Notes under the pieces: model-generated
Databases searched by the model: none
What the model saw: only the letters and a program-made list of their open reading frames with translations
Told to the model about the DNA's origin: nothing
In this document: positions 40,126 through 56,970 of the stretch, one piece after another
Position numbering within the stretch: the stretch's first letter is position 1
How the letters are laid out: each line of letters begins with the position of its first letter
Made by a program: the position numbers and the translations under genes
Origin: Arthrobacter sp. 260
GTDB lineage: Bacteria > Actinomycetota > Actinomycetes > Actinomycetales > Micrococcaceae
DNA: 64,000 bases
Direction: 5' to 3'
NCBI RefSeq assembly: GCF_013116745.1
Contig: NZ_JABFOE010000010.1
Coordinates: 1-64,000, forward strand

Positions 40126-40926
40126 CTAGTCGGTGGCGACCATCGGCGCCACGATCACCGTGGTGCCGTGGTCCTCGAACGACTGTCGCTGGGCGTCGGT
40201 GATCCCGGAATCGGTGATCAGGTTGCTGAAGGTGTAGCCGGTCATGGTGGCGAAGCAGCGGGTGCCGATTTTCGATGAGTCAGCGACCACGTAGGCGGTG
40301 GTTGCCCGCTTGGCGACCATCGCGTTGACTGCCGCCTCGCCCTCGTCACTGATCGTGGGGCCAACGATCGGGTCCAGGCCATTGACCCCGACGAATGCGA
40401 AGTCAAGGGCTACCCGCTGCAGCACCGCGTCGGCATAGGATCCCACCAACTCGTAGGACCGCGGGTTGACGATCCCGCCGGTAACCATGATCTTGAAGTT
40501 GGGCCGGACCACCAGCTGGGCCGCGATATTGATCGCGTTGGTCACGACCGTCAGGGTGGGCTTGGTGGAGGGTTCCATCAGGTCGCTGCGCTTGCTCAGC
40601 GCCGAGGCGATCGCAGTGCTGGTGGTCCCGCCGCAGAGCCCGATCACCGCTCCCTTGGGAATGAGGTCACTTGCTGCCTGGGCAATGGCCCGCTTCTGGT
40701 CCGCGTGGGCGTCCCTGTTGTAACGCCCGGGCAGGTCGTACGCGACAGCCTCGATGCTGGCACCCCCGTGGGTGCGGGTCAGCAGCCGTTGCTCAGCGAG
40801 GCTGTCCAGGTCCCGCCGGGCGGTCGCTGGTGAGACCTTAAGCTTGGTGACGATCTCCTCGACGTCCACCTGGCTGGCCACTGCCAGCAGGTCAAGGATG
40901 GCGTTGAGCCGTTCTGCACGTTTCAT
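40126..40926 (-). CDS. DeoR/GlpR-family transcriptional regulator
   Basis: 266 residues. An N-terminal winged helix (about 5-57, with SPATARRDLDSLAEQRLLTRTHGGA) and a DeoRC sugar-phosphate sensor domain (about 75-235, with GTTS near 99 and TGGIVN near 147). It shares a 4-base ATGA overlap with the aldolase gene and is the last gene of the sugar operon, so it is likely an autoregulating AgaR/LacR-type repressor that responds to a phosphorylated intermediate such as tagatose-6-phosphate. Confidence 0.85.
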   Translation of the reverse strand: MKRAERLNAILDLLAVASQVDVEEIVTKLKVSPATARRDLDSLAEQRLLTRTHGGASIEAVAYDLPGRYNRDAHADQKRAIAQAASDLIPKGAVIGLCGGTTSTAIASALSKRSDLMEPSTKPTLTVVTNAINIAAQLVVRPNFKIMVTGGIVNPRSYELVGSYADAVLQRVALDFAFVGVNGLDPIVGPTISDEGEAAVNAMVAKRATTAYVVADSSKIGTRCFATMTGYTFSNLITDSGITDAQRQSFEDHGTTVIVAPMVATD

Positions 40927-41789
40927 GGTGTCTGCCCCTTCCCGGGTGCTGTGCCCGCGGCGGCGAACAGGGTGAGCAGGCGGGCCGCCTCAGGTTCGAT
41001 GGCGGCGCGTCCGGCGGCGAGGTACTTGCGCGGGTCGACCGCTGACGGGTTGTGCTCGAGGTATAGGCGGACGGCATTGGTGGCCAGCTGGTTCAGGTGG
41101 GTGGAGACGTTGATCTTCGTCATTCCGGCCCGGATTGCCGCGGTAAGATTCGCGTCGGAGACCCCCGATGATCCGTGGAGCACTAGCGGCACCTCAAGGA
41201 CTGACTTCAGGGCAGCGATGAGCACCAGGTCCAGTTCGGCGCTGCGCTGCGTCATGGCGTGGGACGAGCCGACGGCGACGGCCAGGGCGTCCACGCCCGT
41301 TGCCGTCACGAAGGACGCGGCCTCCCCCGGGTCGGTGCGGACCCCCGGCGCGTGGGCGCCGTCCTTGCCGCCGATCCGGCCCAATTCGGCCTCCACGTAC
41401 ACGCCGCGTTCCCGGGCGTAGGCGGCAACTCGGGAGGTGGTGGCGACGTTGCCGTCGAACGGCAGCGCGGCGCCGTCGTACATGACCGAGCCGAAGCCCA
41501 GGTCCACGGCGGCGAGGGCCAGCTCGGGGTCCTCGGCGTGGTCCAGGTGCACGGCAACCGGCACGCTCGCCGACCGGGCGACCGCGAGCGTTGCCAGGGC
41601 GATCGGCTCCAGCCCCCGGTGGTATTTGACGCAGTTTTCGGAGATCTGCAGGATCACCGGGAGTCCCGCCGTCTCGGCGCCGGCCACCAGCGCTTCGGCG
41701 GTTTCCAGGTGGATCACGTTGAAGGCGCCGAGGCCCGCCCCTGAGGCAACAGCCGCGGCCATCAGATCGTGTGTCGGTGTGAGGGTCAT
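40923..41789 (-). CDS. class II fructose/tagatose-bisphosphate aldolase family
   Basis: 288 residues, the length of KbaY/GatY/AgaY. Metal ligands are in HLDHAED near residue 78, EAELGRIGG near 131 and HGSSGVSDAN near 205; NVIHLETAEALV near 25 matches the family N-terminus. The enzyme would split tagatose- or fructose-1,6-bisphosphate to dihydroxyacetone phosphate and glyceraldehyde-3-phosphate. The ATG at 41789 overlaps the kinase stop by 4 bases. Specificity for tagatose is inferred from the neighbouring PfkB kinase and SIS isomerase. Confidence 0.85.
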   Translation of the reverse strand: MTLTPTHDLMAAAVASGAGLGAFNVIHLETAEALVAGAETAGLPVILQISENCVKYHRGLEPIALATLAVARSASVPVAVHLDHAEDPELALAAVDLGFGSVMYDGAALPFDGNVATTSRVAAYARERGVYVEAELGRIGGKDGAHAPGVRTDPGEAASFVTATGVDALAVAVGSSHAMTQRSAELDLVLIAALKSVLEVPLVLHGSSGVSDANLTAAIRAGMTKINVSTHLNQLATNAVRLYLEHNPSAVDPRKYLAAGRAAIEPEAARLLTLFAAAGTAPGKGQTP

Positions 41790-42796
41790 GGTCGGGGCTC
41801 CTGCTGTGCGTGGGGGCTCGGGGGTCGGTCCTGGGTGATGGTCACTGCGTCGATCAGCTCCAGGTAGCTGGCGTGCAGCTCTCCCGCTGCCGGCATCAGG
41901 ACAGCGGCGGCCGACCAGGCAGTGGCCAGCCGCAGCAGAGTCTCGTCGCGGTGCCGGGAGGCTGCGGTGTCCCAGGCACCGGTCGCGCCCGAGGCCAGCA
42001 CGACCGCGAGGGCGGCGACGGCGGCGTCCCCAGCACCTGTCGGGTTGCCGTCCACCCGTGGCAGTGACGCCCACAGGGTGGGGCTCCCGGTCCGGTGCAG
42101 GGCCATGCCCTCCTCCCCGCAACTGACCACCACCGCACCCGCACCACGGTCCAACAGTTGCCGGGCGCCGTCGTCGAGCGTCGTGGCGCCGGTGGCTGCC
42201 AGCAGTTCGTGGTGGTTGGGTTTGAGGAGGTCCGCGCCGGCGTCGGCCGCCGCCAGCAGCGCGTCGCCGGAGGTGTCGATGAGACTGGGAATACCATGCT
42301 TCCGGGCACGCCGCACGAGGGAGGGGTAGAAGTCTACCGGCGCGCCGTCGGGCAGGCTGCCGGATCCGACCAGCGCCCCGGCACCGTCGAGCTGGGCCTC
42401 GAACGCCGCGGAGAGCGCCTCCCATTCGGTGTCCGTCAGGGGGCGCCCGGTCTCGTTGAAGATGCTGGTCTGCCCGGCCTCGCCGTCGACGAAGGCCATG
42501 CTGCGGCGGGTGGCGGCCGCCGTCGGGGTCAGCATGTGTGGGACCCCGCTGGCGACGAGTTCTTCCCGGAACTCGGTGCCTGACAGACCACCGACCGGTG
42601 CCAGTGCAACGGTCCGGTATCCCGCCTGGTGCAGGACCCGCGCAACGTTGAGCCCCTTGCCGCCGGCGCGCAGCAGGGGCTGGCGCACCCGGTGGGATGA
42701 TCCGGGGATCAGTCGCGGCACCGCATAGGTCAGGTCGACCGCCGGGTTCGCCGTCACCGTGATGATGGTCCCGCGGGAGCGCAGGTCCCCAGTCAT
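41786..42796 (-). CDS. 1-phosphofructokinase/tagatose-6-phosphate kinase-type PfkB kinase
   Basis: 336 residues. PfkB motifs are complete: substrate site LLRAGGKGLNVARVLHQAGY near residue 42 and catalytic DGNPTGAGDAAVAAL near 245. The FruK/LacC subgroup phosphorylates fructose-1-phosphate or tagatose-6-phosphate at the remaining end. Together with the aldolase it would form the bottom of a tagatose or fructose bisphosphate route. It overlaps both neighbours by 4 bases. Confidence 0.85.
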   Translation of the reverse strand: MTGDLRSRGTIITVTANPAVDLTYAVPRLIPGSSHRVRQPLLRAGGKGLNVARVLHQAGYRTVALAPVGGLSGTEFREELVASGVPHMLTPTAAATRRSMAFVDGEAGQTSIFNETGRPLTDTEWEALSAAFEAQLDGAGALVGSGSLPDGAPVDFYPSLVRRARKHGIPSLIDTSGDALLAAADAGADLLKPNHHELLAATGATTLDDGARQLLDRGAGAVVVSCGEEGMALHRTGSPTLWASLPRVDGNPTGAGDAAVAALAVVLASGATGAWDTAASRHRDETLLRLATAWSAAAVLMPAAGELHASYLELIDAVTITQDRPPSPHAQQEPRP

Positions 42797-43752
42797 GGCG
42801 TATCCAGGAGGCTGCGGGCGCGCAGTGCCGCGCCGATCAGGCCGGCGTCCTGACCCATCCGCGCCTCCAGGAGGACCGGTCGCCGGTGGAAGGAGAGGTT
42901 CCTGTCAACCTCGCGGCGCAGCGGGCCGAGCAACGACTCACCGGCCTGGGCCAGCCCGCCGCCGATCACCACGGCCTCGGTGCCGAGGATAGCGACCAGT
43001 TGGCTGATGCTGAAGGCCAGCGCCGCGACGGCGTCGTCTATCACCTGGCGGGCGACCGGATCCCCCGCGGCTGCGGCGTCGAACACGTCCCGCGCACCGG
43101 TGACCGGTTGGCTGCTCTGTTCTGCATAGCGGCGGGCGATTGCTCCCGCTGAACCAACGGTTTCCAGGCACCCGACCACACCGCAGGTGCACGGCAGCCC
43201 GCCGGGCACCCGGGCGTGCCCCAGCTCACCGGCATATCCGCCGGCCAGCACGCGCACTCCCCCGCAGAACACGGCGCCCGCGATCCCGGTCCCGATGATC
43301 ATGACGACGACGTCCTCGAGCCCGCGGGCAGCGCCGAAGCGCATCTCGGCGTCGCCGGCAGCGCCGACGTCGTGCGCGTAGGTGACCGGAAGACCGGTGG
43401 CGTCCTGGAGGCGCCGGACAAACGGGAAGTCGCGCCAGCCGAGGTTCGCTGAGTAGATTCCGACGCCGTTGATTTCATCAACCAGTCCCGGAGCGATCAG
43501 CCCGATGGCGCCGATGCGGTGGGCTGGCCAGGCGGCGCGGTAGTCGGCGAGGAGCTCGGCCGCGCGTTCCACGATGCTCTCCCCGGGGATCTGTGAGGGT
43601 GCCGGGGTGGGGGTGCGCCGGATGTCGAGGAGGGTCCCGTCCGGATCGGCGAGGGCCGACTTCAGGTCGGTGCCGCCCACGTCGATGGCCAGCACGAGGT
43701 CCGTCAGGGGTGCCGGTGCCGGGTCCGCCGTCGTCGCCGGGTGGTGGGTCAT
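42793..43752 (-). CDS. ROK-family sugar kinase
   Basis: 319 residues. ATP-binding DVGGTDLKSAL near residue 26 and the ROK zinc-binding signature GHARVPGGLPCTCGVVGC near 175 are complete, with no N-terminal helix-turn-helix, so this is a kinase, not a repressor. Likely substrates are glucose, N-acetyl- or free hexosamines. In this operon it would phosphorylate the sugar brought in by the divergent ABC importer. The ATG at 43752 lies five bases after the SIS gene stop; the frame extends upstream through the SIS gene end and was not used. Confidence 0.85.
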   Translation of the reverse strand: MTHHPATTADPAPAPLTDLVLAIDVGGTDLKSALADPDGTLLDIRRTPTPAPSQIPGESIVERAAELLADYRAAWPAHRIGAIGLIAPGLVDEINGVGIYSANLGWRDFPFVRRLQDATGLPVTYAHDVGAAGDAEMRFGAARGLEDVVVMIIGTGIAGAVFCGGVRVLAGGYAGELGHARVPGGLPCTCGVVGCLETVGSAGAIARRYAEQSSQPVTGARDVFDAAAAGDPVARQVIDDAVAALAFSISQLVAILGTEAVVIGGGLAQAGESLLGPLRREVDRNLSFHRRPVLLEARMGQDAGLIGAALRARSLLDTP

Positions 43753-43757
43753 CGGTA

Positions 43758-44678
43758 CTAGGAGTCCAGGATCACTGAGCGGGTGAGGTTCCGGGGCAGG
43801 TCCGGGTCCAGCCCGCGGGCACGGGCCCGGGCGAGAGTGATCTTGTGGATCAGGGCCAGGTCGGCCAGCGGGTGGCGCCCGGTGTGGACATAGTCGGCAC
43901 CGGTGGGAGCAACGTCGTTGGCGAGTCCCGCGACGTCGTCGCCGAATAGCCACACCACCCGGCCCGGGGCGGCGATCGAGATGGGTCCGTGGCGGTATTC
44001 CTTGGCGGGGTAGGACTCGGTCCAGCCCTGTACTCCCTCACGCATCTTCAGCCCCGCCTCGTGCGCAAGCCCCACGGTCCAGCCGGTCCCCAGGAAGGTG
44101 AACTGCTCGGCGTCGAGCATCTCGGCAGGGAGGTCCATCTCCAGTGCTGCTGTCGCATCGGTGATCGCTCCGCCCAGGTCGATGCCCAGTGACGCCAGCA
44201 GGTAGGCGAGGGCTGCGGTGGCGAAACGGGTCTGCACCACCGACTGCTCGTCGGCGTAGGGCAGGGCGACGACGGCGTCGGCCAGGGTGATGGCCGGGGA
44301 ACTGGTGTCGCCGATGACGGCGATGATCCGGACGGACCCCTTGAGTTCCGTCATGAGTTCGAGCACCTCGGTGGTGGTGCCGGAGCGGGAGATCGCGACG
44401 ACGGCGTCGTAGCCGCGGCCAGCCACCACCGCTGCCTCGGAGGCCGCAAACGCATCGGTCAGTCCCTTCCCGGCGCTTTCGCGCGCGGCGGCGTAGCTTT
44501 GCGCCATGAACCAGGACGTGCCGCAGCCGATGACGGCAACGCGTTCGCCGTCGGCGGGGAGGAGATTCTCGGAGGCTGCCTGGTCGATGGCCTGGCGCCA
44601 GACGGCGGGCTGCGAGTGGAGCTCCTGGTCCATGTGCGTGCCTGCGGATCCGGGTGCCTGGGGGGCGGTGTGGGGCAT
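43758..44678 (-). CDS. double-SIS sugar-phosphate isomerase/deaminase (AgaS/GlmS-like)
   Basis: 306 residues with two SIS domains: VIGCGTSWFMAQ near residue 49 and AISRSGTTTEVLELM near 96 in the first, FLGTGWTVGLAHEAGLKMREG near 195 and KEYRHGPIS near 225 in the second. This is the GlmS-isomerase/AgaS design, without the glutaminase domain, which interconverts amino-sugar phosphates and keto-sugar phosphates with release of ammonia. It is the first gene of the operon. AAAGGAGC precedes the ATG. Confidence 0.85.
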   Translation of the reverse strand: MPHTAPQAPGSAGTHMDQELHSQPAVWRQAIDQAASENLLPADGERVAVIGCGTSWFMAQSYAAARESAGKGLTDAFAASEAAVVAGRGYDAVVAISRSGTTTEVLELMTELKGSVRIIAVIGDTSSPAITLADAVVALPYADEQSVVQTRFATAALAYLLASLGIDLGGAITDATAALEMDLPAEMLDAEQFTFLGTGWTVGLAHEAGLKMREGVQGWTESYPAKEYRHGPISIAAPGRVVWLFGDDVAGLANDVAPTGADYVHTGRHPLADLALIHKITLARARARGLDPDLPRNLTRSVILDS

Positions 44679-44974
44679 CGGGAGCTCCTTTGCGGTTTAC
44701 GGCGGCTCATCCCGCGGTGATTGGGTCTGACGTTTCAAGGGGTAAAGCGATCAGTAACAATCTAACCACTCCCCGGGCACTTTTGGCAGTGCGGATGCCG
44801 TAACACTCAGATCTCGATCAGCGCGCCCGCTTGACGTGAGACATGGATCACGCAATTATCAATCCACAACGGATGAACAGTAATGCTCATTCTGAAGGCA
44901 ATACCGTCAACTTGTTGCAAGTATTCCGGTGTCAGCCACAGCCGCTGCGCCACCTTTGGGAGAACGAGGAAACC
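44679..44974. promoter_or_regulatory. divergent promoter region of the sugar regulon
   Basis: 296 bp between the catabolic operon and the importer genes, clearly AT-richer than the genes. It contains a 13-bp palindrome ACTTGTTGCAAGT (44910-44922) and two copies of CAGTAA (44755 and 44877, in ATCAGTAACAATC and AACAGTAATGCTC). These are candidate operators for the DeoR-family regulator. The plus-strand open frame from 44843 has no coding character. Confidence 0.45.
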
Positions 44975-46222
44975 ATGAAGAAATCAATCCGTACCGGCAT
45001 GGTCGCCAGTGTGGCGGTCGCCGGTCTTATGCTCAGCTCCTGCGGCTTCGGCGGCGGAGACAGCGGTGGGGAGGAGGAGGGCAGCACGTCACTGGACCTG
45101 CTGGTGCCCAGCTACTCCGACGGAAGCCGGGCCCTCTGGGAGGGTGTCATCGAGGAGTTCGAGGCAGCCAACGAGGACATCTCCATCAATCTTCAGGTCG
45201 AATCGTGGGAGAACCTTGAATCGGTGCTGAACACCCAGATCCAGGCTGGCGAGGCCCCGGATATCTATAACGGCGGCGCTTTCTCAGCGTTCGCCACCGA
45301 GGGCCTGCTGTATACCGCCGAGGAGATCGCGTCGCCAGAGACGATCGCCGACTTCCAGGAGTCCTTCGCCGCCAACGAGCAGGTGGACGGCACCCAGTAC
45401 GCCCTGCCACTCCTCGCTTCGGCGCGGGCCCTGTTCTACAACGAGGACCTGTTCGAGGAGGCCGGGGTCGATGGCCCGCCCACCACCTGGGACGAGCTCT
45501 ACGATGCGGCAGCGGCGATCACCGAGACCGGCACGCCCGGCTACGGCATGCCGCTCGGGTCCGAGGAGGCCCAGGGCGAGGCACTGATCTGGATGGCAGG
45601 GAACGGCGGTGGATTCGGTGACGAAAGCGAAATTACCGTGAACACTCCCGAGAACCTCGAGGCAGCCGAGTTCATGAAGCGCATGATCGACGACGGCCTG
45701 ACCCAGGCCGATCCGGGCGCCACCCAGCGCACCCCGATGATCAATGTGTTCATCCAGGGCCAGATCGGCATGGTGTACGGCCTGCCGCAGACCGTGGGGC
45801 AGATTGAAGCCGAGAACCCCGAGCTAAACTACGGGCTGGCGAACATTCCCACGGCGTCGGGCGAACCGGCCACCCTGGGCGTTGCCGACCGGCTCATGTC
45901 GTTCAAGAACGACGGCGACAAGGCCGAGGCTGTCACCGCTTTCATGGACTTCTTCTTCGCTCCGGAGAACTACGTGGAATGGGTCAGTACCGAGGGCTTC
46001 CTCCCGACCACCATTTCCGGTGCCGAGGAGATGTCCGGTGACGAGACCCTGGCGCCGTTCCTGGAGATGCTGCCGAGCGCGGTGTTCTACCCCACCTCCA
46101 ACCCGGCCTGGAACGCCACCGACGGTGCGTTCAAGTCCCTGTTCGGCCAGCTGGGCCAGGGGATGGAACCTGCAGAGGTACTTGAGCAGATCCAGGCCGA
46201 GGCCGACGAAGCAGCCGAGTAG
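44975..46222 (+). CDS. extracellular sugar-binding lipoprotein of an ABC importer
   Basis: 415 residues. A lipoprotein signal (MKKSIRTGMVASVAVAGLM) ends in the lipobox LSSC with Cys at about 25. The mature part follows the SBP_bac_1 pattern, with LLVPSYSDGSRALWEG near residue 46 and APDIYNGGAFSAF near 94. It delivers a sugar to the two permeases encoded downstream. ATG 44975 has GAGG a few bases upstream. The specific sugar cannot be read, but the divergent kinase and isomerase genes suggest a hexosamine or galactose-type sugar. Confidence 0.9.
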   Translation: MKKSIRTGMVASVAVAGLMLSSCGFGGGDSGGEEEGSTSLDLLVPSYSDGSRALWEGVIEEFEAANEDISINLQVESWENLESVLNTQIQAGEAPDIYNGGAFSAFATEGLLYTAEEIASPETIADFQESFAANEQVDGTQYALPLLASARALFYNEDLFEEAGVDGPPTTWDELYDAAAAITETGTPGYGMPLGSEEAQGEALIWMAGNGGGFGDESEITVNTPENLEAAEFMKRMIDDGLTQADPGATQRTPMINVFIQGQIGMVYGLPQTVGQIEAENPELNYGLANIPTASGEPATLGVADRLMSFKNDGDKAEAVTAFMDFFFAPENYVEWVSTEGFLPTTISGAEEMSGDETLAPFLEMLPSAVFYPTSNPAWNATDGAFKSLFGQLGQGMEPAEVLEQIQAEADEAAE

Positions 46223-46230
46223 CCCACACA

Positions 46231-46268
46231 CCGCGGAGTGCCTTCCCCTTGCGGAAGGCACTCCGCGG
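46231..46268 (+). terminator. intercistronic hairpin between binding-protein and permease genes
   Basis: Perfect 16-bp stem (46231-46246 with 46253-46268) and a 6-base loop, 8 bases after the binding-protein stop. No U-run follows, so it probably stabilises the upstream mRNA and allows partial read-through, giving more binding protein than permease, as known for malE-malF. Confidence 0.85.
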
Positions 46269-46306
46269 TACCACCCCCACCGGCGGCAGAGAATGAGCTA
46301 TTTACC

Positions 46307-47242
46307 ATGAGTGCACAGCCCGTACTGGCCAACCCGGCCGCGTCCCCAGGACGAAAGCGCCGCCGCCAGAATTCCGACGGCCTTCCCGCAGCCCTCCCCT
46401 GGATTGGGCCGGTACTCCTCCTGATCTTCGCGATAGTGATTTTCCCGGCCGGGTTCATGATCTACAACTCCACCCGGGAAATCAGCCAGAGCGGGATCGA
46501 CCAGGGGTCCGCGGGGTTTGCGAACTTCGCCGATGTCTTCACCGACCCCAACCTGCCCCGGGTTCTCCTGAATACAGTGGTCTGGGTGGTGGTGGTGGTC
46601 TCGTTGACAGTGCTGATCTCCCTGGCCCTGGCACAGTTCCTCAACAAGCCCTTCCCCGGACGCACCCTGGTCCGGATGGCAGTGGTTGTCCCGTGGGCCG
46701 CAAGCGTGGTGATGACCACCACCGTGTTCTACTACGGCCTGGACAGCAACTACGGCATCATGAATGCCTTCCTGGTGGACATCGGCATCCTCGACAGTCC
46801 CTACGGCTTCACCAAGAACGTCATCCCGGCGCTCGGCCTGGCCATCATCGTCGCCGTGTTCGTCTCGATCCCCTTCACCGCCTACACCCTGCTGGCAGGG
46901 CTGCAGGCGGTACCGGAGGACGCGCTGGAGGCGGCAAAGATGGACGGGGCGGGCCGGTTCCGCACCTACTTCAGCATTGTGCTGCCGCAGCTTCGCGGGG
47001 CCCTCGCGGTGGCGGTGCTGATCAACATCATCAACGTGTTCAATAACCTGCCGATCCTGAGGATCATCACCGGTTCGATTCCCGGGTACCAGGCAGACAC
47101 CCTGATGACCTACATCTTCAAGGTGCTGCAGTTTGACCGCCGGGTCGACATCGCCAGTGCCCTGAGCGTGCTCAACTTTGCCATTGTCATCGTGATCGTT
47201 GCGGCGTACGTGAAAATCGTCAAGCCGATGAAGGAGCTCTAG
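46307..47242 (+). CDS. ABC sugar permease, MalF-like
   Basis: 311 residues, six helices. The cytoplasmic EAA loop that docks on the ATPase is EALEAAKMDGAGRFRTYF near residue 205. The N-terminal 20 residues are basic and hydrophilic. The ATG at 46307 is chosen over a frame beginning inside the hairpin at 46238; the ribosome-binding site is weak (GAGAATGA). Only two bases separate its stop from the next permease start. Confidence 0.9.
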   Translation: MSAQPVLANPAASPGRKRRRQNSDGLPAALPWIGPVLLLIFAIVIFPAGFMIYNSTREISQSGIDQGSAGFANFADVFTDPNLPRVLLNTVVWVVVVVSLTVLISLALAQFLNKPFPGRTLVRMAVVVPWAASVVMTTTVFYYGLDSNYGIMNAFLVDIGILDSPYGFTKNVIPALGLAIIVAVFVSIPFTAYTLLAGLQAVPEDALEAAKMDGAGRFRTYFSIVLPQLRGALAVAVLINIINVFNNLPILRIITGSIPGYQADTLMTYIFKVLQFDRRVDIASALSVLNFAIVIVIVAAYVKIVKPMKEL

Positions 47243-47244
47243 AC

Positions 47245-48150
47245 ATGGCCACCATCGCCCCGGGTCCGGCAACTCTCCCCCCGGCGCAGGCACGCCGGAA
47301 ACGGTATGGCTCCGACCAGGTATCAGGCCGCCGGATGGGACTGCGGATGGCGATCGGCGCCGTCGTCGCCCTGGTGTTCCTGCTCCCCTACGTGATCATG
47401 CTCGTGGGGTCGCTGAAGACCCGCTCGGAGATCCTCGCGGTGCCGCCCGCCTACTTCCCCACCGAGGGCCTGCAGTGGAGCAACTATGTGACCATGTGGG
47501 ACACCCCCGAAACACCGCTGCCCTACAACCTGGTCTCGACGATCATCATCGCCGTGTTCGCGACCCTGCTGGTGCTGCTCGTCGCCACCCCGGCGGCCTA
47601 TTACACAGCGAGGTTCCGCTTCCCCGGGAAGACGGTGTTCCTGTTCCTGGTCATTGTCACCCAGATGCTGCAACCTGCAGTGCTCACCGCCGGTTTGTTC
47701 AGGGAAATGCTGGTGCTGGGGATCAACGACACCTGGCTGGCGATGATCCTGATCAACGCGGCGTTCAACCTTTCCTTCGCCCTGTGGATCATGCACAGCT
47801 TCTTCGCGGCGATTCCGAAGGAGATCGATGAGGCAGCCCAGCTGGACGGCGCAGGGAAGCTGACGGTGATGTTCCGGGTGAACCTGCCGCTGGTCTGGCC
47901 GGGCATCGTCACGGCGGTGATCTTCACCTTCGTCTCATCGTGGAACGAGTTCGCGGCGTCTCTGGTGATCATGTCAACGGCGGAGAACCAGCCGCTGTCA
48001 GTTGCGTTGACCAAGTTCATCGGTCAGTACGCCACCTCGTGGCAGTACGTGTTCGGTGTCTCGATCGTGGCGATCATTCCCGTGATCATCCTCTTCGCCT
48101 TGATCGAGAAGCGGCTGATCGGCGGCCTCACAGCAGGAGCAGTAAAGTAG
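47245..48150 (+). CDS. ABC sugar permease, MalG-like
   Basis: 301 residues, six helices, with the EAA loop EIDEAAQLDGAGKLTVMF near residue 193. AAGGAGC precedes the ATG. No ATP-binding protein gene is present, which is normal in actinobacteria where one MsiK/UgpC-type ATPase serves several importers. The 3' end overlaps the convergent DinB-family gene by 23 bases. Confidence 0.9.
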   Translation: MATIAPGPATLPPAQARRKRYGSDQVSGRRMGLRMAIGAVVALVFLLPYVIMLVGSLKTRSEILAVPPAYFPTEGLQWSNYVTMWDTPETPLPYNLVSTIIIAVFATLLVLLVATPAAYYTARFRFPGKTVFLFLVIVTQMLQPAVLTAGLFREMLVLGINDTWLAMILINAAFNLSFALWIMHSFFAAIPKEIDEAAQLDGAGKLTVMFRVNLPLVWPGIVTAVIFTFVSSWNEFAASLVIMSTAENQPLSVALTKFIGQYATSWQYVFGVSIVAIIPVIILFALIEKRLIGGLTAGAVK

Positions 48151-51339: not shown

Positions 51340-52545
51340 TCAGACGATCCGGTTGCCCTGCTTCCAGACGGCGTGGGTCAGGGGCACTCCCGGGCGGTAC
51401 GCCAGGTGGGTGGCCGACGGTGCGTTCAGCAACTGCAGGTCCGCCCGGTGCCCGACGGCGAGGGACCCGACCGCGCGGGCGCCGTCGTCGTCGGTCCCCG
51501 TTTCCCGGTGCAGGGCCAGCGCGCCCCCGAAGGTGGCGGCCCGGACGGCTTCGTGAACGCTGAGCCCCATCTGAAGCACTGCAGTGGTCACGCAGTAGGC
51601 CATCGAGGTGGTGTAGGAGGTGCCGGGGTTGCAGTTGGAGGCCAGCGCGATCTGGACACCGGCATCCAGCAGAGCACGCCCCGGCGCGAGGGGCTGGCGG
51701 GTGGACAGGTCGCAGGCGGGCAGGCAGCCAGCCACCGTTCCCCGGGGTCCGGTGCCGTCGTCGTACCCGGACCAGCTGTCGGCGAGGGCAGCGATGTCCG
51801 CCTCGTCCAGGTAGTTCACGTGGTCTACACTGGCGGCGCCGAACTCGACGGCGAGCTGCACCCCGGCACCGGGACCCAGCTGGTTTCCATGGACCCGCAG
51901 TCCCAGTCCCGCGTCGCGGCAGGCCGTGAGGATCTCGCGGGACTGCTCGGCGCTGAAGGCTCCGCGCTCACAGAACACGTCGGCCCAGCTGACGTACGGG
52001 CGGACGGCGTCGAGCATGGGACCGCAGACCAGACGGACATACTGGTCGGGGTCAATCCCTGCGGGAATCAGATGCGCCCCGAGGTACGTCACCTCGTCGA
52101 CGACGCCGGCGGCGATGCGGGCGCTGCGCCCCTCGTGCTCGACGTCGAGCCCGTACCCCGTCTTGGTTTCCAGGTAGGTGGTGCCGCCCGCGTTCGCTTC
52201 GGCGACCCGGCCGAGGAGCAGTCGGGTGAGGTCGTAATCGGACGTAGTGCGGGTCGCGTCAGTGGTGACGGCGATACCGCCGGCGGCGTAGTCCTGGCCC
52301 GCCATCCGCGCCTCGAATTCGGCGGTGCGGTCCCCCGCGAAGACCAGATGGGTGTGGCTGTCCACCCAGCCCGGAAGCCCTGCCCGGCCCTGCGCATCGA
52401 TCATGTCGTCGGCGGCTGGCGCATCGGCTGCCGCGCCAATCCAGCTGATCCGTTCTCCCTCGAACACCACCGCGGCGTTCCGCAGGACCGTGTGTTCACG
52501 GTCCTGGGTGGTGAGTTCACCGATGTTGGTGATCACGAGGCTCAT
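51340..52545 (-). CDS. hutI: imidazolonepropionase
   Basis: 401 residues. HutI hydrolyses imidazolonepropionate to formiminoglutamate. Metal/active-site motifs: DSHTHLVFAGDRTAEFEARMAG near residue 61, TTYLETKTGYGLD near 125, HGNQLGPGAG near 220 and ASNCNPGTSYTTSM near 300. ATG 52545 has AAAGGAAACG upstream and overlaps the hutF stop by 4 bases. It is the last gene in the operon. Confidence 0.95.
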   Translation of the reverse strand: MSLVITNIGELTTQDREHTVLRNAAVVFEGERISWIGAAADAPAADDMIDAQGRAGLPGWVDSHTHLVFAGDRTAEFEARMAGQDYAAGGIAVTTDATRTTSDYDLTRLLLGRVAEANAGGTTYLETKTGYGLDVEHEGRSARIAAGVVDEVTYLGAHLIPAGIDPDQYVRLVCGPMLDAVRPYVSWADVFCERGAFSAEQSREILTACRDAGLGLRVHGNQLGPGAGVQLAVEFGAASVDHVNYLDEADIAALADSWSGYDDGTGPRGTVAGCLPACDLSTRQPLAPGRALLDAGVQIALASNCNPGTSYTTSMAYCVTTAVLQMGLSVHEAVRAATFGGALALHRETGTDDDGARAVGSLAVGHRADLQLLNAPSATHLAYRPGVPLTHAVWKQGNRIV

Positions 52546-53891
52546 GCGTTTCCTTTCAGGGCAGCGGCCAGCAGTCCGGCCGGGTCGCCGAGTGCGAGAT
52601 GGTGTCCGTCGCGCGCCACCAGATGACCGGCGACGACCACGGCTGTCACATCCGCGGCGGTGGCGGTGAGGGGTAACTGGGCGGGGCTGGAGCCGATGGT
52701 GCGCAGCGACGCCGGGTTGATACTGACCAGGTCGCAGGGTCGACCGACCTCGATGGCGGAGACGGGGGTGGCCATCGAGTGGGTGGCCCCGGTGGTGGCG
52801 GCGTTGAGCAGGTCTGCGGGGCTGAACCGTCCGCGCAGGCCCGAACCGAGCCGTTCCCCATGTTCGAGGGCCCGCATTTCCAGCCAGGGGTCGATCACCG
52901 CGTGCTGGTCGGTGCCGAGCGCGATCCGCGCTCCGGCGTCCTGCAGCGCCCGGGCGGGGCCGATCCCGTCGGCAAGGTCCGCCTCGGTGGTGGGACACAG
53001 GACTGCTGTGGTCCCGGCGCCTCCCAACAGGGCGATGTCCTCAGCGGTGAGATGAGTGGCGTGGACGACGCTTAATCGGTCGGAGAGCAATCCGTGCCGG
53101 TGCAGCAGTCCGGCCGGTGTGGTGCCATAGTGCTTTTCGCAGTCCGCGTTCTCGGCGGGCTGCTCGGACAGGTGGATGTGGAGTGGGACATCGGTGGGGA
53201 GGCCTGCGGCGAGGATGCGCAGGGCTGTTTCAGGCACCGCCCGGACCGAATGCAGGGCTGCCCCGACGGTCACGAGGTCCGGGTCGAAGTGTTCGGCAAT
53301 AGTCCGGCGCAGGTCGGCGAACCGCTCCAGCCAGGCCGCCGCGTCGGCGTCGCCGAACCGTTCCTGATCGGGAGACAGCGGTGTTCCGATGCCGCCGGCG
53401 AGGTAGCAGGTGTCCAGCAGCGTCAACCGGATTCCGGCAGCGATCGCGGCGCGGCACAGGGCCAGCTCCATGGCATGCGGGCCGTCCCCGGTCGCCCCGT
53501 AGGGCTCACCACCGGGCTGGTGGTGTACGTAGTGGAATTCGGCGACGCTGGTCCAGCCAGTGACCACCATCTCGGCGAAGACCGCAGTGGCGAGCCGTTC
53601 GTAGCTGGCGGGGGTCAGCGTTCCGGCGGCGCGGTACATCTCCTCACGCCACACCCAGAAGTCACCGCCGCCGTCGTGGGTCCGTCCCCGGAGCACCCGG
53701 TGGAACGCGTGCGAGTGGGCGTTGGCGGCGGCGGGGAACACCACACCGGTGAGGTCCCTGTTGTCCTCCGGTGCGGCGTCAACGCCGCAAGTCACGCCGG
53801 TAATGGTGCCTGAGTCATCGGTTTCAATGCGGACCCGCTGTTGGATCCCCCGTCCGGCCACCCAGGCCTGTTCACACCAGAACGTCGTCAC
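52542..53891 (-). CDS. hutF: formimidoylglutamate deiminase
   Basis: 449 residues. HutF releases ammonia from formiminoglutamate to give N-formylglutamate, the five-step version of the pathway. Motifs: NAHSHAFHRVLRGR near residue 57 (metal ligands), SEFHYVHH-type EFHYVHHQPGG near 116, HLSEQPAEN near 238 and HATHLTAED near 276. The start is GTG at 53891, overlapping the amidohydrolase stop by 4 bases (GTGA). Confidence 0.93.
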   Translation of the reverse strand: MTTFWCEQAWVAGRGIQQRVRIETDDSGTITGVTCGVDAAPEDNRDLTGVVFPAAANAHSHAFHRVLRGRTHDGGGDFWVWREEMYRAAGTLTPASYERLATAVFAEMVVTGWTSVAEFHYVHHQPGGEPYGATGDGPHAMELALCRAAIAAGIRLTLLDTCYLAGGIGTPLSPDQERFGDADAAAWLERFADLRRTIAEHFDPDLVTVGAALHSVRAVPETALRILAAGLPTDVPLHIHLSEQPAENADCEKHYGTTPAGLLHRHGLLSDRLSVVHATHLTAEDIALLGGAGTTAVLCPTTEADLADGIGPARALQDAGARIALGTDQHAVIDPWLEMRALEHGERLGSGLRGRFSPADLLNAATTGATHSMATPVSAIEVGRPCDLVSINPASLRTIGSSPAQLPLTATAADVTAVVVAGHLVARDGHHLALGDPAGLLAAALKGNA

Positions 53892-55129
53892 AGCAGGTCT
53901 TCCAGCACGTCGGCGAGCGCCGTGGCTGCGAGGTTGGCGTCGTCGCGTTCGACGTACTCTTCCGGCGAGTGGCTGATGCCGGTCGGGTTGCGGATGTACA
54001 CCATGGCCGAGGGGACGTAACCGGCCAGCACACCGGCGTCGTGCCCGGCACCGGTGGGCAGGGCTGGTACCGGGTTCCCGTCGTTCGACCGGCGCAGCGA
54101 GTTCTGCAGCTGGCGCTGCAGGGGTGCATCGAAGTGGACGGTGCTGCTGAAGGATTCTTCAGTCAGTGTCACTGCGCACCCCTCGAACGCTGCTGCCTTC
54201 TGGGCCTGACCGTGGATCGACTCGACGAGGGCAGCAGTGACGGCATCGTCGGGGTGGCGGACGTCGAGCCACAGGTCGACGCGCGAGGCGATGACGTTGG
54301 TGCCGCCCGGGACTGGCTGCAGCCGTCCGACGGTAGCGCGGGCGTCATCCTGTGCTGCGGCGATCCGGCGGATGGCCAGGATAATCTGTGCGGCGACGAC
54401 CATCGGGTCGGCGCGGTCTGCCATCAGGGTGGTGCCGGCGTGGTTGCCCTGACCTGCAACGCTCAGCCGCCACCGTCCGTGCCCGAGGATGGAGGAGCCG
54501 ACGCCGACCGGTGCGTCCTGGTCGATCAGAGCCCGGCCCTGCTCGACGTGGAGTTCAACGAAGTCGCCGATGGTCCGGAGGCCGTCCTCGTCGCGGCCGA
54601 GACGTGCCGGGTCCAGTCCGTTCGCTCGGCTGACGTCGGCGAAGGTGTTGCCGTCGGTGTCCTTGAGGTTCCGCACCTTATCGGCGTCGATGGCACCGGT
54701 GAGGAGCCGCGATCCGAGGCAGGCCACCCCGAACCGGGAGCCTTCCTCCTCCGGGAAGACGGTCACGGCGAGGGAGCGTCGCGGCTCGACGCCCCGTTCC
54801 TTCAGGACGTCGACGGCGGCGAGCGCAGCGCTCACGCCGAGCGGTCCGTCGAACGCCCCGCCACCGGGCACCGAATCGAGGTGGCTTCCGGTGACCAGCG
54901 CGCCGGTCCGGTCCCCCGCTCCTGCATCCCACCAGCCCCACATGATCCCGTTGCGATCGGTGCTGACCTCGAGGCCACGCTGGGAGGCTTCGGCGGTGAA
55001 CCAGTCGCGCAGCTCAAGCTCGGCCCCGGAAAACACCGGCCGGGAGTACCCACCCCGATGGGAATCACGTCCGACGCCGGAAATCGACGCGAGCATGCTA
55101 CTAACGGTATTCATCGATTTCTCCACCAT
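53888..55129 (-). CDS. M20-family amidohydrolase (allantoate/N-carbamoyl amino acid amidohydrolase type)
   Basis: 413 residues. Zinc ligands are in TGSHLDSVPGGGAFDGPLG near residue 79, FPEEEGSRFG near 125 and FVELHVEQG near 190, with the dimerisation domain in between and the last His in a GISHSPEEY block. The family includes allantoate amidohydrolase and N-carbamoyl-L-amino acid hydrolase. In this operon its place between hutU and hutF suggests it removes the formyl group from N-formylglutamate instead of a classical HutG. ATG 55129 or ATG 55114 could be the start, both with GGAG upstream. Confidence 0.85.
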   Translation of the reverse strand: MVEKSMNTVSSMLASISGVGRDSHRGGYSRPVFSGAELELRDWFTAEASQRGLEVSTDRNGIMWGWWDAGAGDRTGALVTGSHLDSVPGGGAFDGPLGVSAALAAVDVLKERGVEPRRSLAVTVFPEEEGSRFGVACLGSRLLTGAIDADKVRNLKDTDGNTFADVSRANGLDPARLGRDEDGLRTIGDFVELHVEQGRALIDQDAPVGVGSSILGHGRWRLSVAGQGNHAGTTLMADRADPMVVAAQIILAIRRIAAAQDDARATVGRLQPVPGGTNVIASRVDLWLDVRHPDDAVTAALVESIHGQAQKAAAFEGCAVTLTEESFSSTVHFDAPLQRQLQNSLRRSNDGNPVPALPTGAGHDAGVLAGYVPSAMVYIRNPTGISHSPEEYVERDDANLAATALADVLEDLL

Positions 55130-55155
55130 CTAATCTCCATGCCAACAGGGTTGAG

Positions 55156-55259
55156 CAGGGGGCCGGAGGCCGCCTGCCGTGTAGGCGAGTTGGATTTCCG
55201 GTAGCGAGGAACGAGCCAGCGGAAATCTTTGTCGAGCCGGCGGCAGGGGGCCGGAGGCC
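55156..55259. repeat. imperfect palindrome bounded by 16-bp direct repeats
   Basis: CAGGGGGCCGGAGGCC occurs at 55156-55171 and 55244-55259. Between them CCTGCCG/CGGCAGG and GGATTTCCG/CGGAAATC are inverted, giving a roughly 100-base imperfect hairpin with GCGAGGAACGAGC near the tip. It fills the gap between hutU and the amidohydrolase gene. The arrangement resembles dispersed intergenic repeats (REP-like). Confidence 0.75.
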
Positions 55260-55275
55260 CCACACCCCAGAAGAG

Positions 55276-56970
55276 TCAGTCTGCCATGGGGATGCGGACT
55301 CCACGCTCTGCCGCGACGTCGGATGCCCGCTGGTATCCGGCGTCGACGTGGCGGATCACGCCCATCCCGGGGTCGTTGGTGAGCAGCCGTTCCAGTTTCT
55401 CGGCGGCGAGCGGTGTCCCGTCGGCCACTGACACCTGGCCGGCGTGGATGGACCGGCCAATGCCCACTCCTCCACCGTGGTGGATAGACACCCAGGTGGC
55501 ACCGGAGGAGGTGTTGAGCAGGGCGTTGAGCAGGGGCCAGTCGGCGACGGCGTCGGAGCCGTCGGCCATCGCCTCGGTCTCCCGGTAGGGTGAGGCCACC
55601 GATCCGGAGTCGAGGTGGTCGCGGCCGATCACGATGGGCGCTGACACCTTGCCGTCGGCGACGAGCTGGTTGAACATCTTCCCGGCCTTGGCCCGGTCGC
55701 CGTAGCCGAGCCAGCAGATCCGCGCGGGCAGGCCCTCAAACTCGACCAGATCACCGGCGGCGTCGAGCCAGCGGTGCAGGTGGGCGTTCTCGGGGAACAG
55801 TTCCTTCAGCGCCGCGTCGGTGACGGCGATGTCGGCCGGGTCGCCGGAGAGCGCCACCCAGCGGAACGGACCCATACCTTCGCAGAACAGCGGCCGGATG
55901 TACGCGGGGACGAAGCCGGGAAACTCGAACGCCCGCGGGTAGCCGCCCTGCCGGGCTTCGTCACGGATGGAGTTGCCGTAGTCGAAGACCTCGGCGCCGG
56001 CGTCCTGGAAACCGACCATCGCCTCCACATGGTGGGCCATGGAGGTCTGCGCCTTCTTGGTGAAACCGTCGGGATCGCCCTTCGCCTCGCGGTCCCACTC
56101 GTCAGTGGACACTCCCTCGGGGAGGTAGCTCAGCGGGTCATGGGCGGAGGTCTGGTCGGTGACGATGTCGATGGTGAGCTCGCCGGCCAGGTGGCGGCGG
56201 AGCAACTCCGGGAAGACTTCGGCAGCATTACCGACGACGCCGACCGACAGGGCGCGCTTCTCCTCCTTGGCGGCCAGCACCTGGCGCAGGCCGTCCTCAA
56301 GGTCGGTGGCGACGACGTCGAGGTAGCGTTTCGCGGCGCGGCGCTCCAGCCGGGACCGCTCGACGTCGACAATCAGCACCGCGCCACCGTTCAGGGTGAC
56401 GGCGAGCGGCTGGGCACCACCCATGCCGCCGCAGCCGGCGGTCAGGGTCAGCGTCCCGGCCAGCGTAGCCGTCGGGGATTTGAACAGCTTGCGGGCAATC
56501 GCCGCGAACGTCTCGTAGGTGCCCTGCAGGATGCCCTGCGTGCCGATGTAGATCCAGGAGCCGGCAGTCATCTGCCCGTACATCATCAGACCTTCGGCTT
56601 CGAGCTTGCGGAACTCGGGCCAGGTGGCCCAGTCCCCCACCAGGTTGGAGTTGGCCAGCAGTACCCTCGGCGCCCATTTGTTGGTGCGGAAGATACCGAC
56701 GGGTTTCCCCGACTGCACCAGCAGCGTCTCATCATCCTCGAGGTCCTCCAGGGACCTGACGATGGCGTCGTAGGCTTCCCAGCTGCGCGCGGCACGGCCG
56801 GTTCCGCCGTAGACCACCAGGTCCTCGGGCCGTTCGGCCACCTCGGGGTCGAGGTTGTTCATCAGCATCCGCAGGGGTGCCTCGGTCTGCCAGCTCTTGG
56901 CGGTGAGTGTGGTGCCGCGGGCGGCACGGATGGAGCGGGAGGGGTCGTGCTGGGTGAATGAGGTGCTCAT
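55276..56970 (-). CDS. hutU: urocanate hydratase
   Basis: 564 residues, the full length of urocanase. It converts urocanate to imidazolonepropionate with NAD+ as a tightly bound electrophile. The NAD-binding region [15 protein letters not shown] near residue 170 and the active-site block [15 protein letters not shown] near 332 are intact. Its ATG overlaps the iclR stop by 4 bases, so regulator and enzyme are coupled. A repeat element separates it from the next operon gene by 147 bp. Confidence 0.97.

What the first reader, a model, noticed from the sequence alone, without database searches (positions are those of the whole stretch)
40126..48150. Amino-sugar/tagatose-type regulon lacking a deacetylase and an ATPase
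SIS isomerase, ROK kinase, PfkB kinase and class II aldolase form a full route from a free hexosamine or hexose to trioses, with an importer divergent. There is no NagA/AgaA deacetylase, so the sugar may be galactosamine or a non-acetylated sugar, or the deacetylase is elsewhere. A ROK kinase plus AgaS-like isomerase is an unusual pairing for Aga pathways, which normally use PTS uptake.
Basis: inference. Interest (0 to 1): 0.55.

Follow-up and report, generated by a model that had tools for sequence, protein, structure and literature searches.

The report
Soil actinobacterial galactosamine-type sugar-use operon
This stretch is a tightly packed set of genes that an Arthrobacter-type soil bacterium probably uses to import and burn galactosamine or N-acetylgalactosamine through tagatose phosphates; the overall route is known, but the key deaminase, the kinase and the importer are not the textbook versions.

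Summary
In detail: 40126-48150 holds SIS-ROK-PfkB-class II aldolase-DeoR as one minus-strand operon (4-base overlaps) divergent from a lipoprotein and two permeases. In the best 80 of 288 related loci the operon is common in Micrococcales and linked to galactosamine chemistry: 24/80 carry a GH101 endo-alpha-N-acetylgalactosaminidase, 12/80 this importer (none both), 7/80 a NagA deacetylase, 3/80 a GH20. Most ROK-bearing loci share one predicted operator; its two best matches in the 64 kb window lie between SIS and the lipoprotein gene. The 'missing' parts are not mysterious: the genome has NagA, NagB and a stand-alone MsiK/UgpC-type ATPase elsewhere, and published S. coelicolor NagA deacetylates GalNAc-6-P. 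The SIS protein is not an AgaS (19 bits against a cut-off of 529); its nearest solved relatives are glucosamine-6-P deaminases, and no AgaS passes cut-off in any of 36 genomes of the genus. So it is best read as an Aga pathway rebuilt from non-orthologous parts: new variant of a known kind. GalN versus GalNAc is unresolved, and no enzyme specificity was tested.

The parts
40126..40926 (-). DeoR-family repressor, last gene of the operon
   Evidence: Pfam HTH_DeoR and DeoRC over gathering scores; NCBIfam AgaR 142.5 bits under its 260 cut-off; present in 72 of 80 related loci
40923..41789 (-). class II ketose-bisphosphate aldolase (predicted tagatose-1,6-bisphosphate aldolase)
   Evidence: Pfam PF01116 276.7 bits; TIGR00167 216.6 over cut-off 215.6; GatY 221.3 under its 383 cut-off; HLDH and HGSSG motifs
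41786..42796 (-). PfkB-family kinase (predicted tagatose-6-phosphate kinase)
   Evidence: TIGR03168 hexose kinase 231.5 over 216.4; best solved relative is a tagatose-6-phosphate kinase, 2awd, 111 bits
42793..43752 (-). ROK-family kinase (predicted GalN or GalNAc 6-kinase)
   Evidence: Pfam ROK 180.9 bits; ELGH and CTCGVVGCLE motifs; best solved relatives are glucokinases and NanK
43758..44633 (-). SIS-domain hexosamine-6-phosphate deaminase/isomerase, first gene of the operon (predicted galactosamine-6-phosphate deaminase, not of the AgaS family)
   Evidence: Pfam SIS; best NCBIfam GlmD 74.6 bits, AgaS 19 bits; AlphaFold2 mean pLDDT 86.8; VIA-align Z 31.3-31.0 to 2df8, 2dec and 2cb0
44718..44737 (+). 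predicted DeoR operator, second site
   Evidence: 14.4-14.5 bits with a matrix from sites of other loci
44744..44763 (-). predicted DeoR operator, main site
   Evidence: 17.5-17.7 bits, best of the 64 kb; 1 of 1000 shuffles of the intergenic region reaches it; only exact pattern hit in the genome
44975..46222 (+). sugar-binding lipoprotein of an ABC importer
   Evidence: Pfam SBP_bac_1 133 bits; lipobox-like LSSC at the N-terminus; present with both permeases in 12 of 80 loci
46307..47242 (+). ABC importer permease 1
   Evidence: Pfam BPD_transp_1
47245..48150 (+). ABC importer permease 2
   Evidence: Pfam BPD_transp_1; GlcU 129.8 bits, MalG 88.7 bits, both under cut-off

Best explanation
It is a DeoR-repressed catabolic regulon for galactosamine and/or N-acetylgalactosamine. 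The lipoprotein and two permeases, powered by a shared MsiK-type ATPase encoded elsewhere, bring the sugar in. The ROK kinase makes the 6-phosphate. If the sugar is acetylated, the genome's NagA removes the acetyl group. The SIS enzyme deaminates and isomerises galactosamine-6-phosphate to tagatose-6-phosphate plus ammonia. The PfkB kinase makes tagatose-1,6-bisphosphate and the class II aldolase splits it to trioses. The DeoR protein represses both divergent transcripts from sites at 44718-44763 and is released by a pathway phosphate. Shown here: gene content, operon packing, family membership, the SIS fold group, the conserved operator-like motif, and genomic association with GalNAc glycosidases and deacetylase in relatives. 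Inferred: every substrate, every reaction, repression, and the identity of the ATPase partner.
For: A dedicated sugar-phosphate kinase plus aldolase implies a ketose phosphate that does not simply enter glycolysis, such as tagatose-6-P (pathway knowledge). GH101 lies in 24 of 80 named loci, in 23 of them within 3.1 kb upstream of SIS on the opposite strand (Pfam on three proteins), although GH101 was found in only 3 of 57 genomes of relatives. NagA in 7 of 80, NagB in 6 of 80, GH20 in 3 of 80 (representatives by profile). In L110 and L115 the order is SIS-ROK-PfkB-aldolase-DeoR-nagB-nagA; in L118 nagB and nagA follow the same importer; in L107 the importer lies inside the operon. One motif precedes SIS in 42 non-redundant loci (score 309 against 61 for shuffled), at 12 bits or more in 23 of 24 GH101 loci and 7 of 12 importer loci (the matrix came from 28 such sites). 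SIS fold: Z 31 to GlcN-6-P deaminase structures, 29-30 to AgaS-type structures. No AgaS over cut-off in 36 genomes of the genus. S. coelicolor NagA cleaves GalNAc-6-P, kcat 29 per s (PMC12680351, table passage); E. coli NagA can replace AgaA (PMC12118421, passage).
Against: No enzyme specificity was tested; kinase and aldolase families do not by themselves separate tagatose from fructose or 1-phosphates (TIGR03828 1-phosphofructokinase scores 210 bits, lacC 112, both under cut-off). This strain has no GH101, GH20 or GH114 match, so its own polymer source is unknown. NagB beside the operon in some relatives could mean glucosamine is handled there too. The own-genome nagA shows no operator (best 5.4 bits in its 4.2 kb locus), so it is not visibly in the regulon. 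In importer-type loci the motif is weaker: 5 of 12 score under 12 bits. The sampled loci are related, so 24 of 80 is not 24 independent events.
Confidence: 0.72

Rival explanations
1. Glucosamine/GlcNAc or chitosan-derived sugar: the SIS enzyme makes fructose-6-P and the PfkB and aldolase are an extra lower-glycolysis branch.
For: Closest solved SIS relatives are glucosamine-6-P deaminases; NagB and NagA sit beside the operon in some relatives.
Against: The genome already has a NagB over cut-off (266 bits against 237); fructose-6-P needs no dedicated kinase and aldolase; GH101 in 24 of 80 loci points to GalNAc.
Confidence: 0.13
2. A neutral sugar (galactose-6-P or tagatose route): the SIS protein is a simple aldose-ketose isomerase and the ROK protein a galactose or tagatose kinase.
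For: ROK and PfkB families include kinases of neutral sugars; GH101 also releases galactose as part of a disaccharide (recalled).
Against: SIS sequence and fold sit with amino-sugar-6-P deaminases; NagA, NagB and GH20 neighbours.
Confidence: 0.09
3. Fructosamine (Amadori product) deglycase pathway of the Frl/Fra type.
For: A SIS deglycase with a sugar kinase is the logic of that pathway (recalled); FrlB 8glr is among the fold matches, Z 20.1.
Against: Z 20.1 against 29-31 for hexosamine-6-P deaminases and AgaS-type structures; a deglycase yields glucose-6-P and needs no PfkB or aldolase (recalled); GalNAc neighbours.
Confidence: 0.04
4. Sulfoquinovose glycolysis, which some Arthrobacter carry out with an isomerase, a kinase and an aldolase.
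For: The same three enzyme classes occur in Arthrobacter sulfoglycolysis (PMC8873060, passages).
Against: Those strains have YihS, YihV and YihT homologues and a GabD-type dehydrogenase; here the isomerase is a SIS protein and none of the eight gene products scanned is a dehydrogenase; the lipoprotein matches the SQ-glycerol binder SmoF at only 42 bits, far from its best match at 105.
Confidence: 0.02

Closest known systems
Aga (GalNAc/GalN) pathway of E. coli and streptococci
   Same: SIS deaminase/isomerase, Tag-6-P kinase step, class II aldolase, DeoR-family repressor (PMC4694137, PMC12118421, passages)
   Different: there uptake and phosphorylation are by a PTS and the isomerase is AgaS; here an ABC importer, a ROK kinase and a non-AgaS SIS enzyme
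Shewanella Aga pathway (AgaP, AgaK, AgaA-II, AgaS)
   Same: non-PTS permease plus cytosolic kinase (PMC2996990, passages; PMC12118421, passage)
   Different: permease AgaP plus an outer-membrane transporter rather than an ABC importer; AgaS-type isomerase; family of AgaK not learned here
GlmD / NagB-II glucosamine-6-P deaminases (SIS)
   Same: fold and best sequence matches
   Different: only 74.6 bits to GlmD against a 580 cut-off; 291 residues, shorter than the 323-position GlmD model; different gene context
MsiK-dependent ABC sugar importers of actinobacteria
   Same: lipoprotein and two permeases without their own ATPase; stand-alone UgpC/MsiK-type ATPase elsewhere in the genome
   Different: substrate unknown; pairing with that ATPase not tested
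B. thetaiotaomicron GalNAc locus BT4240-50
   Same: GalNAc kinase tied to mucin-type O-glycan enzymes (PMC11992087, abstract and passages)
   Different: BT4240 is an APH-type kinase, not ROK, and makes the 1-phosphate

Membership tests
AgaS family (TIGR02815) | score over the curated cut-off of 529.2 bits | tested here: not met
   19 bits, partial match 173-221
AgaS family (TIGR02815) | fold of AgaS-type SIS enzymes | tested here: met
   Z 29.9, 29.6 and 29.2 to 3odp, 3i0z and 3c3j; not exclusive, GlmS and GlmD-like chains score alike
GlmD glucosamine-6-P deaminase (NF041128) | score over the curated cut-off of 580 bits | tested here: not met
   74.6 bits
Aga (GalNAc/GalN) catabolic pathway | kinase and aldolase steps below a hexosamine-6-P deaminase in one operon | tested here: met
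   families present, substrates inferred; 59 of 80 loci hold all five operon genes
Aga (GalNAc/GalN) catabolic pathway | deaminase acts on galactosamine-6-phosphate | not testable with these tools
   needs an enzyme assay
Aga (GalNAc/GalN) catabolic pathway | GalNAc-6-P deacetylase in the regulon (GalNAc version) | tested here: inconclusive
   absent here; one full-length NagA elsewhere without an operator; present in or near the operon in 7 of 80 related loci
Aga (GalNAc/GalN) catabolic pathway | PTS uptake genes at the locus | tested here: not met
   ABC lipoprotein and two permeases instead; PTS genes elsewhere in the genome were not searched
AgaR repressor (NF040755) | score over the curated cut-off of 260 bits | tested here: not met
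   142.5 bits; DeoR-family Pfam domains are met
LacC tagatose-6-P kinase (TIGR01231) | score over the curated cut-off of 409.6 bits | tested here: not met
   112.5 bits; broader TIGR03168 hexose kinase is met, 231.5 over 216.4
GatY/KbaY tagatose-bisphosphate aldolase | score over curated cut-offs | tested here: not met
   GatY 221.3 of 383, KbaY 161.4 of 542; broader TIGR00167 is met, 216.6 over 215.6
MsiK-dependent ABC importer | importer operon without ATPase, stand-alone MsiK-type ATPase in the genome | tested here: met
   L152:4186-5274, UgpC 481 bits over 432; its neighbours are a DUF4032 protein and a protein without Pfam match, no importer part
MsiK-dependent ABC importer | that ATPase energises this importer | not testable with these tools
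   needs genetics
FrlB-type deglycase | acts on 6-phosphofructosamine | tested here: inconclusive
   fold match Z 20.1, well below the deaminases; activity untested

The most novel reading that the evidence does not exclude
A new, non-AgaS family of galactosamine-6-phosphate deaminases defines an undescribed GalNAc/GalN regulon of soil Micrococcales. Behind one conserved operator, the slot divergent from the operon holds a secreted GH101 endo-alpha-N-acetylgalactosaminidase, or an ABC importer, or neither, but in none of the 80 loci seen both. These soil bacteria would thus scavenge mucin-type O-glycans or galactosamine polymers.
Probability: 0.5. Interest if true: 0.5.

Novelty: new variant of a known kind. 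Interest (0 to 1): 0.35.

Why it matters
Published pathway reconstruction in gut microbes used AgaS as the signature gene for GalNAc use (PMC5583593, passages). If this SIS family is a GalN-6-P deaminase, AgaS-based surveys would miss GalNAc/GalN use in these soil actinobacteria, and the GH101-linked versions would give a testable gene set for O-glycan use outside the gut.

Tried and rejected
Upstream amidohydrolase as the deacetylase: an amidohydrolase gene found in 43 of 80 loci looked like the missing deacetylase from Pfam, but NCBIfam calls the two representatives scanned (L088, L107) imidazolonepropionase HutI, over cut-off. It marks a shared chromosomal place, since the window also has hut genes at 51340-56970 (hutI there 293.6 bits, just under its 298.15 cut-off), and was dropped.

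GH114 (galactosamine-polymer hydrolase, activity recalled) as the sugar source: 10 of 36 genomes of the genus have it, not this one, and only one of those ten (G025) has the SIS gene. No support. GH20: 2 of 36, not this one. GH101: 3 of 57, not this one; two of the three (G016, G021) have the SIS gene, with GH101 elsewhere in the genome, which is too few to count as co-occurrence.

Operator-like hits outside the intergenic region: 15.0 bits at the 3' end of own nagB (L151:7597) and 12.4 bits at L152:1445 both lie inside reading frames and are probably chance. The two-mismatch pattern gave 4 hits in the genome against 1 for the reversed-pattern control.

Limits of the motif work: the exact-pattern search is partly circular, because the pattern was drafted with the window site in view. 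The matrix left out the sites of the window and L063, but the motif discovery that framed it included them. The shuffled control was one shuffled set with 15 starts against 40 starts for the real set. In one search, shuffling was by two-base blocks; 1 of 1000 shuffles reached the main site's score and 9 of 1000 reached 14.4. The 330-base upstream regions were cut at the tblastn start of SIS, so for some loci they may be off by a few codons.

The automatic gene calls miss or misread some genes in GC-rich DNA; the counts quoted come from tblastn with score thresholds I chose. Profile checks were made on representatives only: GH101 in L075 and L068, GH20 in L129, NagA in L110, L118 and L129, NagB in L110 (over cut-off) and L118 (under), HutI in L088 and L107, CutC in L107 and L115.

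The nearest solved relatives of the lipoprotein (best 8art; 60 of 500 shown) did not tell whether it binds mono- or oligosaccharides; no fold prediction was made for it. The Leyn 2012 paper on proteobacterial GalNAc pathways is not held, so the family of Shewanella AgaK is unknown to me from these calls. Paper searches that might have shown this regulon in Arthrobacter or other actinobacteria: 20 of 78 listed; 15 of 103; 5 of 5; 11 of 11; 4 of 4; 12 of 369; 2 of 2. No title or abstract opening described it; subscription papers are mostly not held.
Full report
What is there. The stretch 40126-48150 contains, on the minus strand from 44633 down, a SIS-domain protein, a ROK kinase, a PfkB kinase, a class II aldolase and a DeoR-family regulator; on the plus strand from 44975, a sugar-binding lipoprotein and two permeases. 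ROK-PfkB, PfkB-aldolase and aldolase-DeoR each overlap by 4 bases and SIS-ROK are 5 bases apart (coordinates), so the five minus-strand genes look like one transcript. The window lies in a 3.9 Mb genome assembly of 193 contigs. One same-genus genome, G036, appears to be Arthrobacter sp. H20: the SIS gene sits at the same place on a contig of 97,739 bases in both G036 and the named record L062.

The SIS protein. It passes the Pfam SIS cut-off but no curated NCBIfam cut-off; best are GlmD (74.6 of 580 bits) and GlmS-type models, with AgaS at 19 of 529. An AlphaFold2 model from an 18-sequence alignment has mean pLDDT 86.8, with a poor C-terminal tail 282-291. Foldseek and VIA-align rank a glucosamine-6-phosphate deaminase and its archaeal homologue first (2cb0, 2df8, 2dec; Z about 31), followed within 1-2 Z units by AgaS-type structures (3odp, 3i0z, 3c3j) and GlmS; FrlB deglycase is at Z 20.1. 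So the fold group is amino-sugar-6-phosphate deaminase/isomerase, but which sugar cannot be read from it. No protein over the AgaS cut-off was found in 36 genomes of the genus, the own one included; 34 of 36 have one weak hit (39-47 bits) in frames of 641-992 residues. In this genome that frame (672 residues) is the one that holds the only other SIS-like matches, and I take it for GlmS.

Neighbours in relatives. The SIS query found 288 relatives in genome contigs, of which the best 80 were kept. By tblastn these 80 hold: aldolase 74, DeoR 72, ROK 65, PfkB 65, HutI 43, GH101 24, lipoprotein and both permeases 12, NagA 7, a sugar MFS transporter 7, NagB 6, CutC 3, GH20 3. Fifty-nine have all five operon genes, and none has both GH101 and the importer. 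GH101 is within 3.1 kb upstream of SIS on the opposite strand in 23 of 24 loci; in L065 it is 7.4 kb away. Twenty-five ROK-bearing loci have neither GH101, importer nor NagA. Fifteen loci show no ROK: 13 are Streptomyces with SIS, aldolase and DeoR, and in two (L106 Paeniglutamicibacter, L126 Streptomyces) the contig ends just past SIS. GH101 was confirmed by Pfam on three proteins from two loci, NagA by NCBIfam over cut-off in L110, L118 and L129, NagB over cut-off in L110. In L110 and L115 nagB and nagA follow DeoR in the same direction; in L118 they follow the importer; in L107 the importer sits between aldolase and DeoR. Among 97 searched genomes including the own, 25 have the SIS gene at E 1e-20; within the genus 11 of 37 others, so it is an optional trait.

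Control region. A motif search on 42 non-redundant upstream regions (of 66 from ROK-bearing loci and the window) found a direct-repeat-like site, about TGATTGAAnnTGATnGTTT, scoring 309 against 61 for shuffled sequence. A matrix from 28 of those sites, without the sites of the window and L063, gives its two best hits in the 64 kb window at 44744-44763(-) and 44718-44737(+), 17.5 and 14.4 bits, the only ones at 12 bits or more; 1 of 1000 shuffles of the intergenic region reaches the first value and 9 of 1000 the second. In the whole genome the derived pattern has one exact hit, this one, and three two-mismatch hits, against one for the reversed pattern. The own nagA locus has no site above 5.4 bits. 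At 12 bits or more are 23 of 24 GH101 loci, 7 of 12 importer loci, 26 of 29 other ROK-bearing loci and 1 of 15 loci without ROK; the first three groups supplied the matrix, so those numbers are partly circular.

The 'missing' parts. The genome encodes one full-length NagA by profile (210 bits, under the 225.65 cut-off), next to ATP synthase epsilon and cold-shock genes, and one NagB (266 over 237) about 13 kb away. Two ATPases carry the MalK-type OB domain. One, on C43, is a UgpC/MsiK-type protein (481 over 432 bits) whose neighbours are a DUF4032 protein and a protein without Pfam match. The other, on C117, follows a sugar-binding protein and a permease on the same strand and so belongs to another importer. 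Published work shows S. coelicolor NagA acts on GalNAc-6-P with kcat 29 per s and Km 2.84 mM (PMC12680351, table passage seen), and that E. coli nagA can replace agaA (PMC12118421, passage seen). Hence neither absence needs a special explanation, although whether the sugar is GalN or GalNAc stays open.

Mechanism and certainty. I commit to the route GalN(Ac) - ROK kinase - (NagA) - SIS deaminase - PfkB - aldolase, with DeoR repression at the divergent promoter, at 0.72. Within that I lean slightly to GalNAc because of GH101, GH20 and NagA in relatives; but the closest named loci (L062, L063) have the importer without NagA or NagB, so free galactosamine is nearly as likely. All substrates are inference. 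The strongest rival is glucosamine; it leaves the dedicated kinase and aldolase unexplained.

Comparison with the known. The chemistry is that of the Aga pathway (PMC4694137, PMC12118421, passages). The parts differ: not AgaS, not PTS at the locus, no equivalog-level match for repressor, kinases or aldolase. Shewanella already showed a non-PTS version (PMC2996990, passages). Ravcheev and co-workers used AgaS as the signature of GalNAc use (PMC5583593, passages), which would not detect this locus. I saw no paper describing this regulon in the listings, within an open-licence library only and with some listings capped. Verdict: new variant of a known kind, moderate interest.

Noticed in passing
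window 51340-56970: Histidine-use genes (hutI, hutF, an allantoate amidohydrolase-like gene, hutU) lie just beyond the importer; hutI is also near the operon in 43 of 80 related loci, marking a conserved chromosomal place.
   Followed up: partly
   Followed up: partly
L068:3-9649: Two GH101 genes in tandem, both on the strand opposite to the SIS operon.
   Followed up: no
L107:16879-17856, L115:5705-6595, L110 near 5740: A CutC-family gene (called copper homeostasis) sits beside the importer in 3 of 80 loci, which hints at a sugar-related role.
   Followed up: no
L111, L119, L120, L121, L123, L124, L125, L130, L131, L132, L134, L136, L139: Thirteen Streptomyces loci keep a shorter SIS-aldolase-DeoR set without ROK or PfkB in the stretch; 7 of them have a sugar MFS transporter upstream on the opposite strand.
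   Followed up: partly
L127:15986-18806; same protein clusters in L068, L072, L073, L083, L091: An FTR1 iron permease and an imelysin-type gene follow the operon; no link to sugar use is apparent.
   Followed up: no
L152:2694-5274 (own genome): The stand-alone MsiK/UgpC-type ATPase gene lies beside a DUF4032 gene on the same strand.
   Followed up: no
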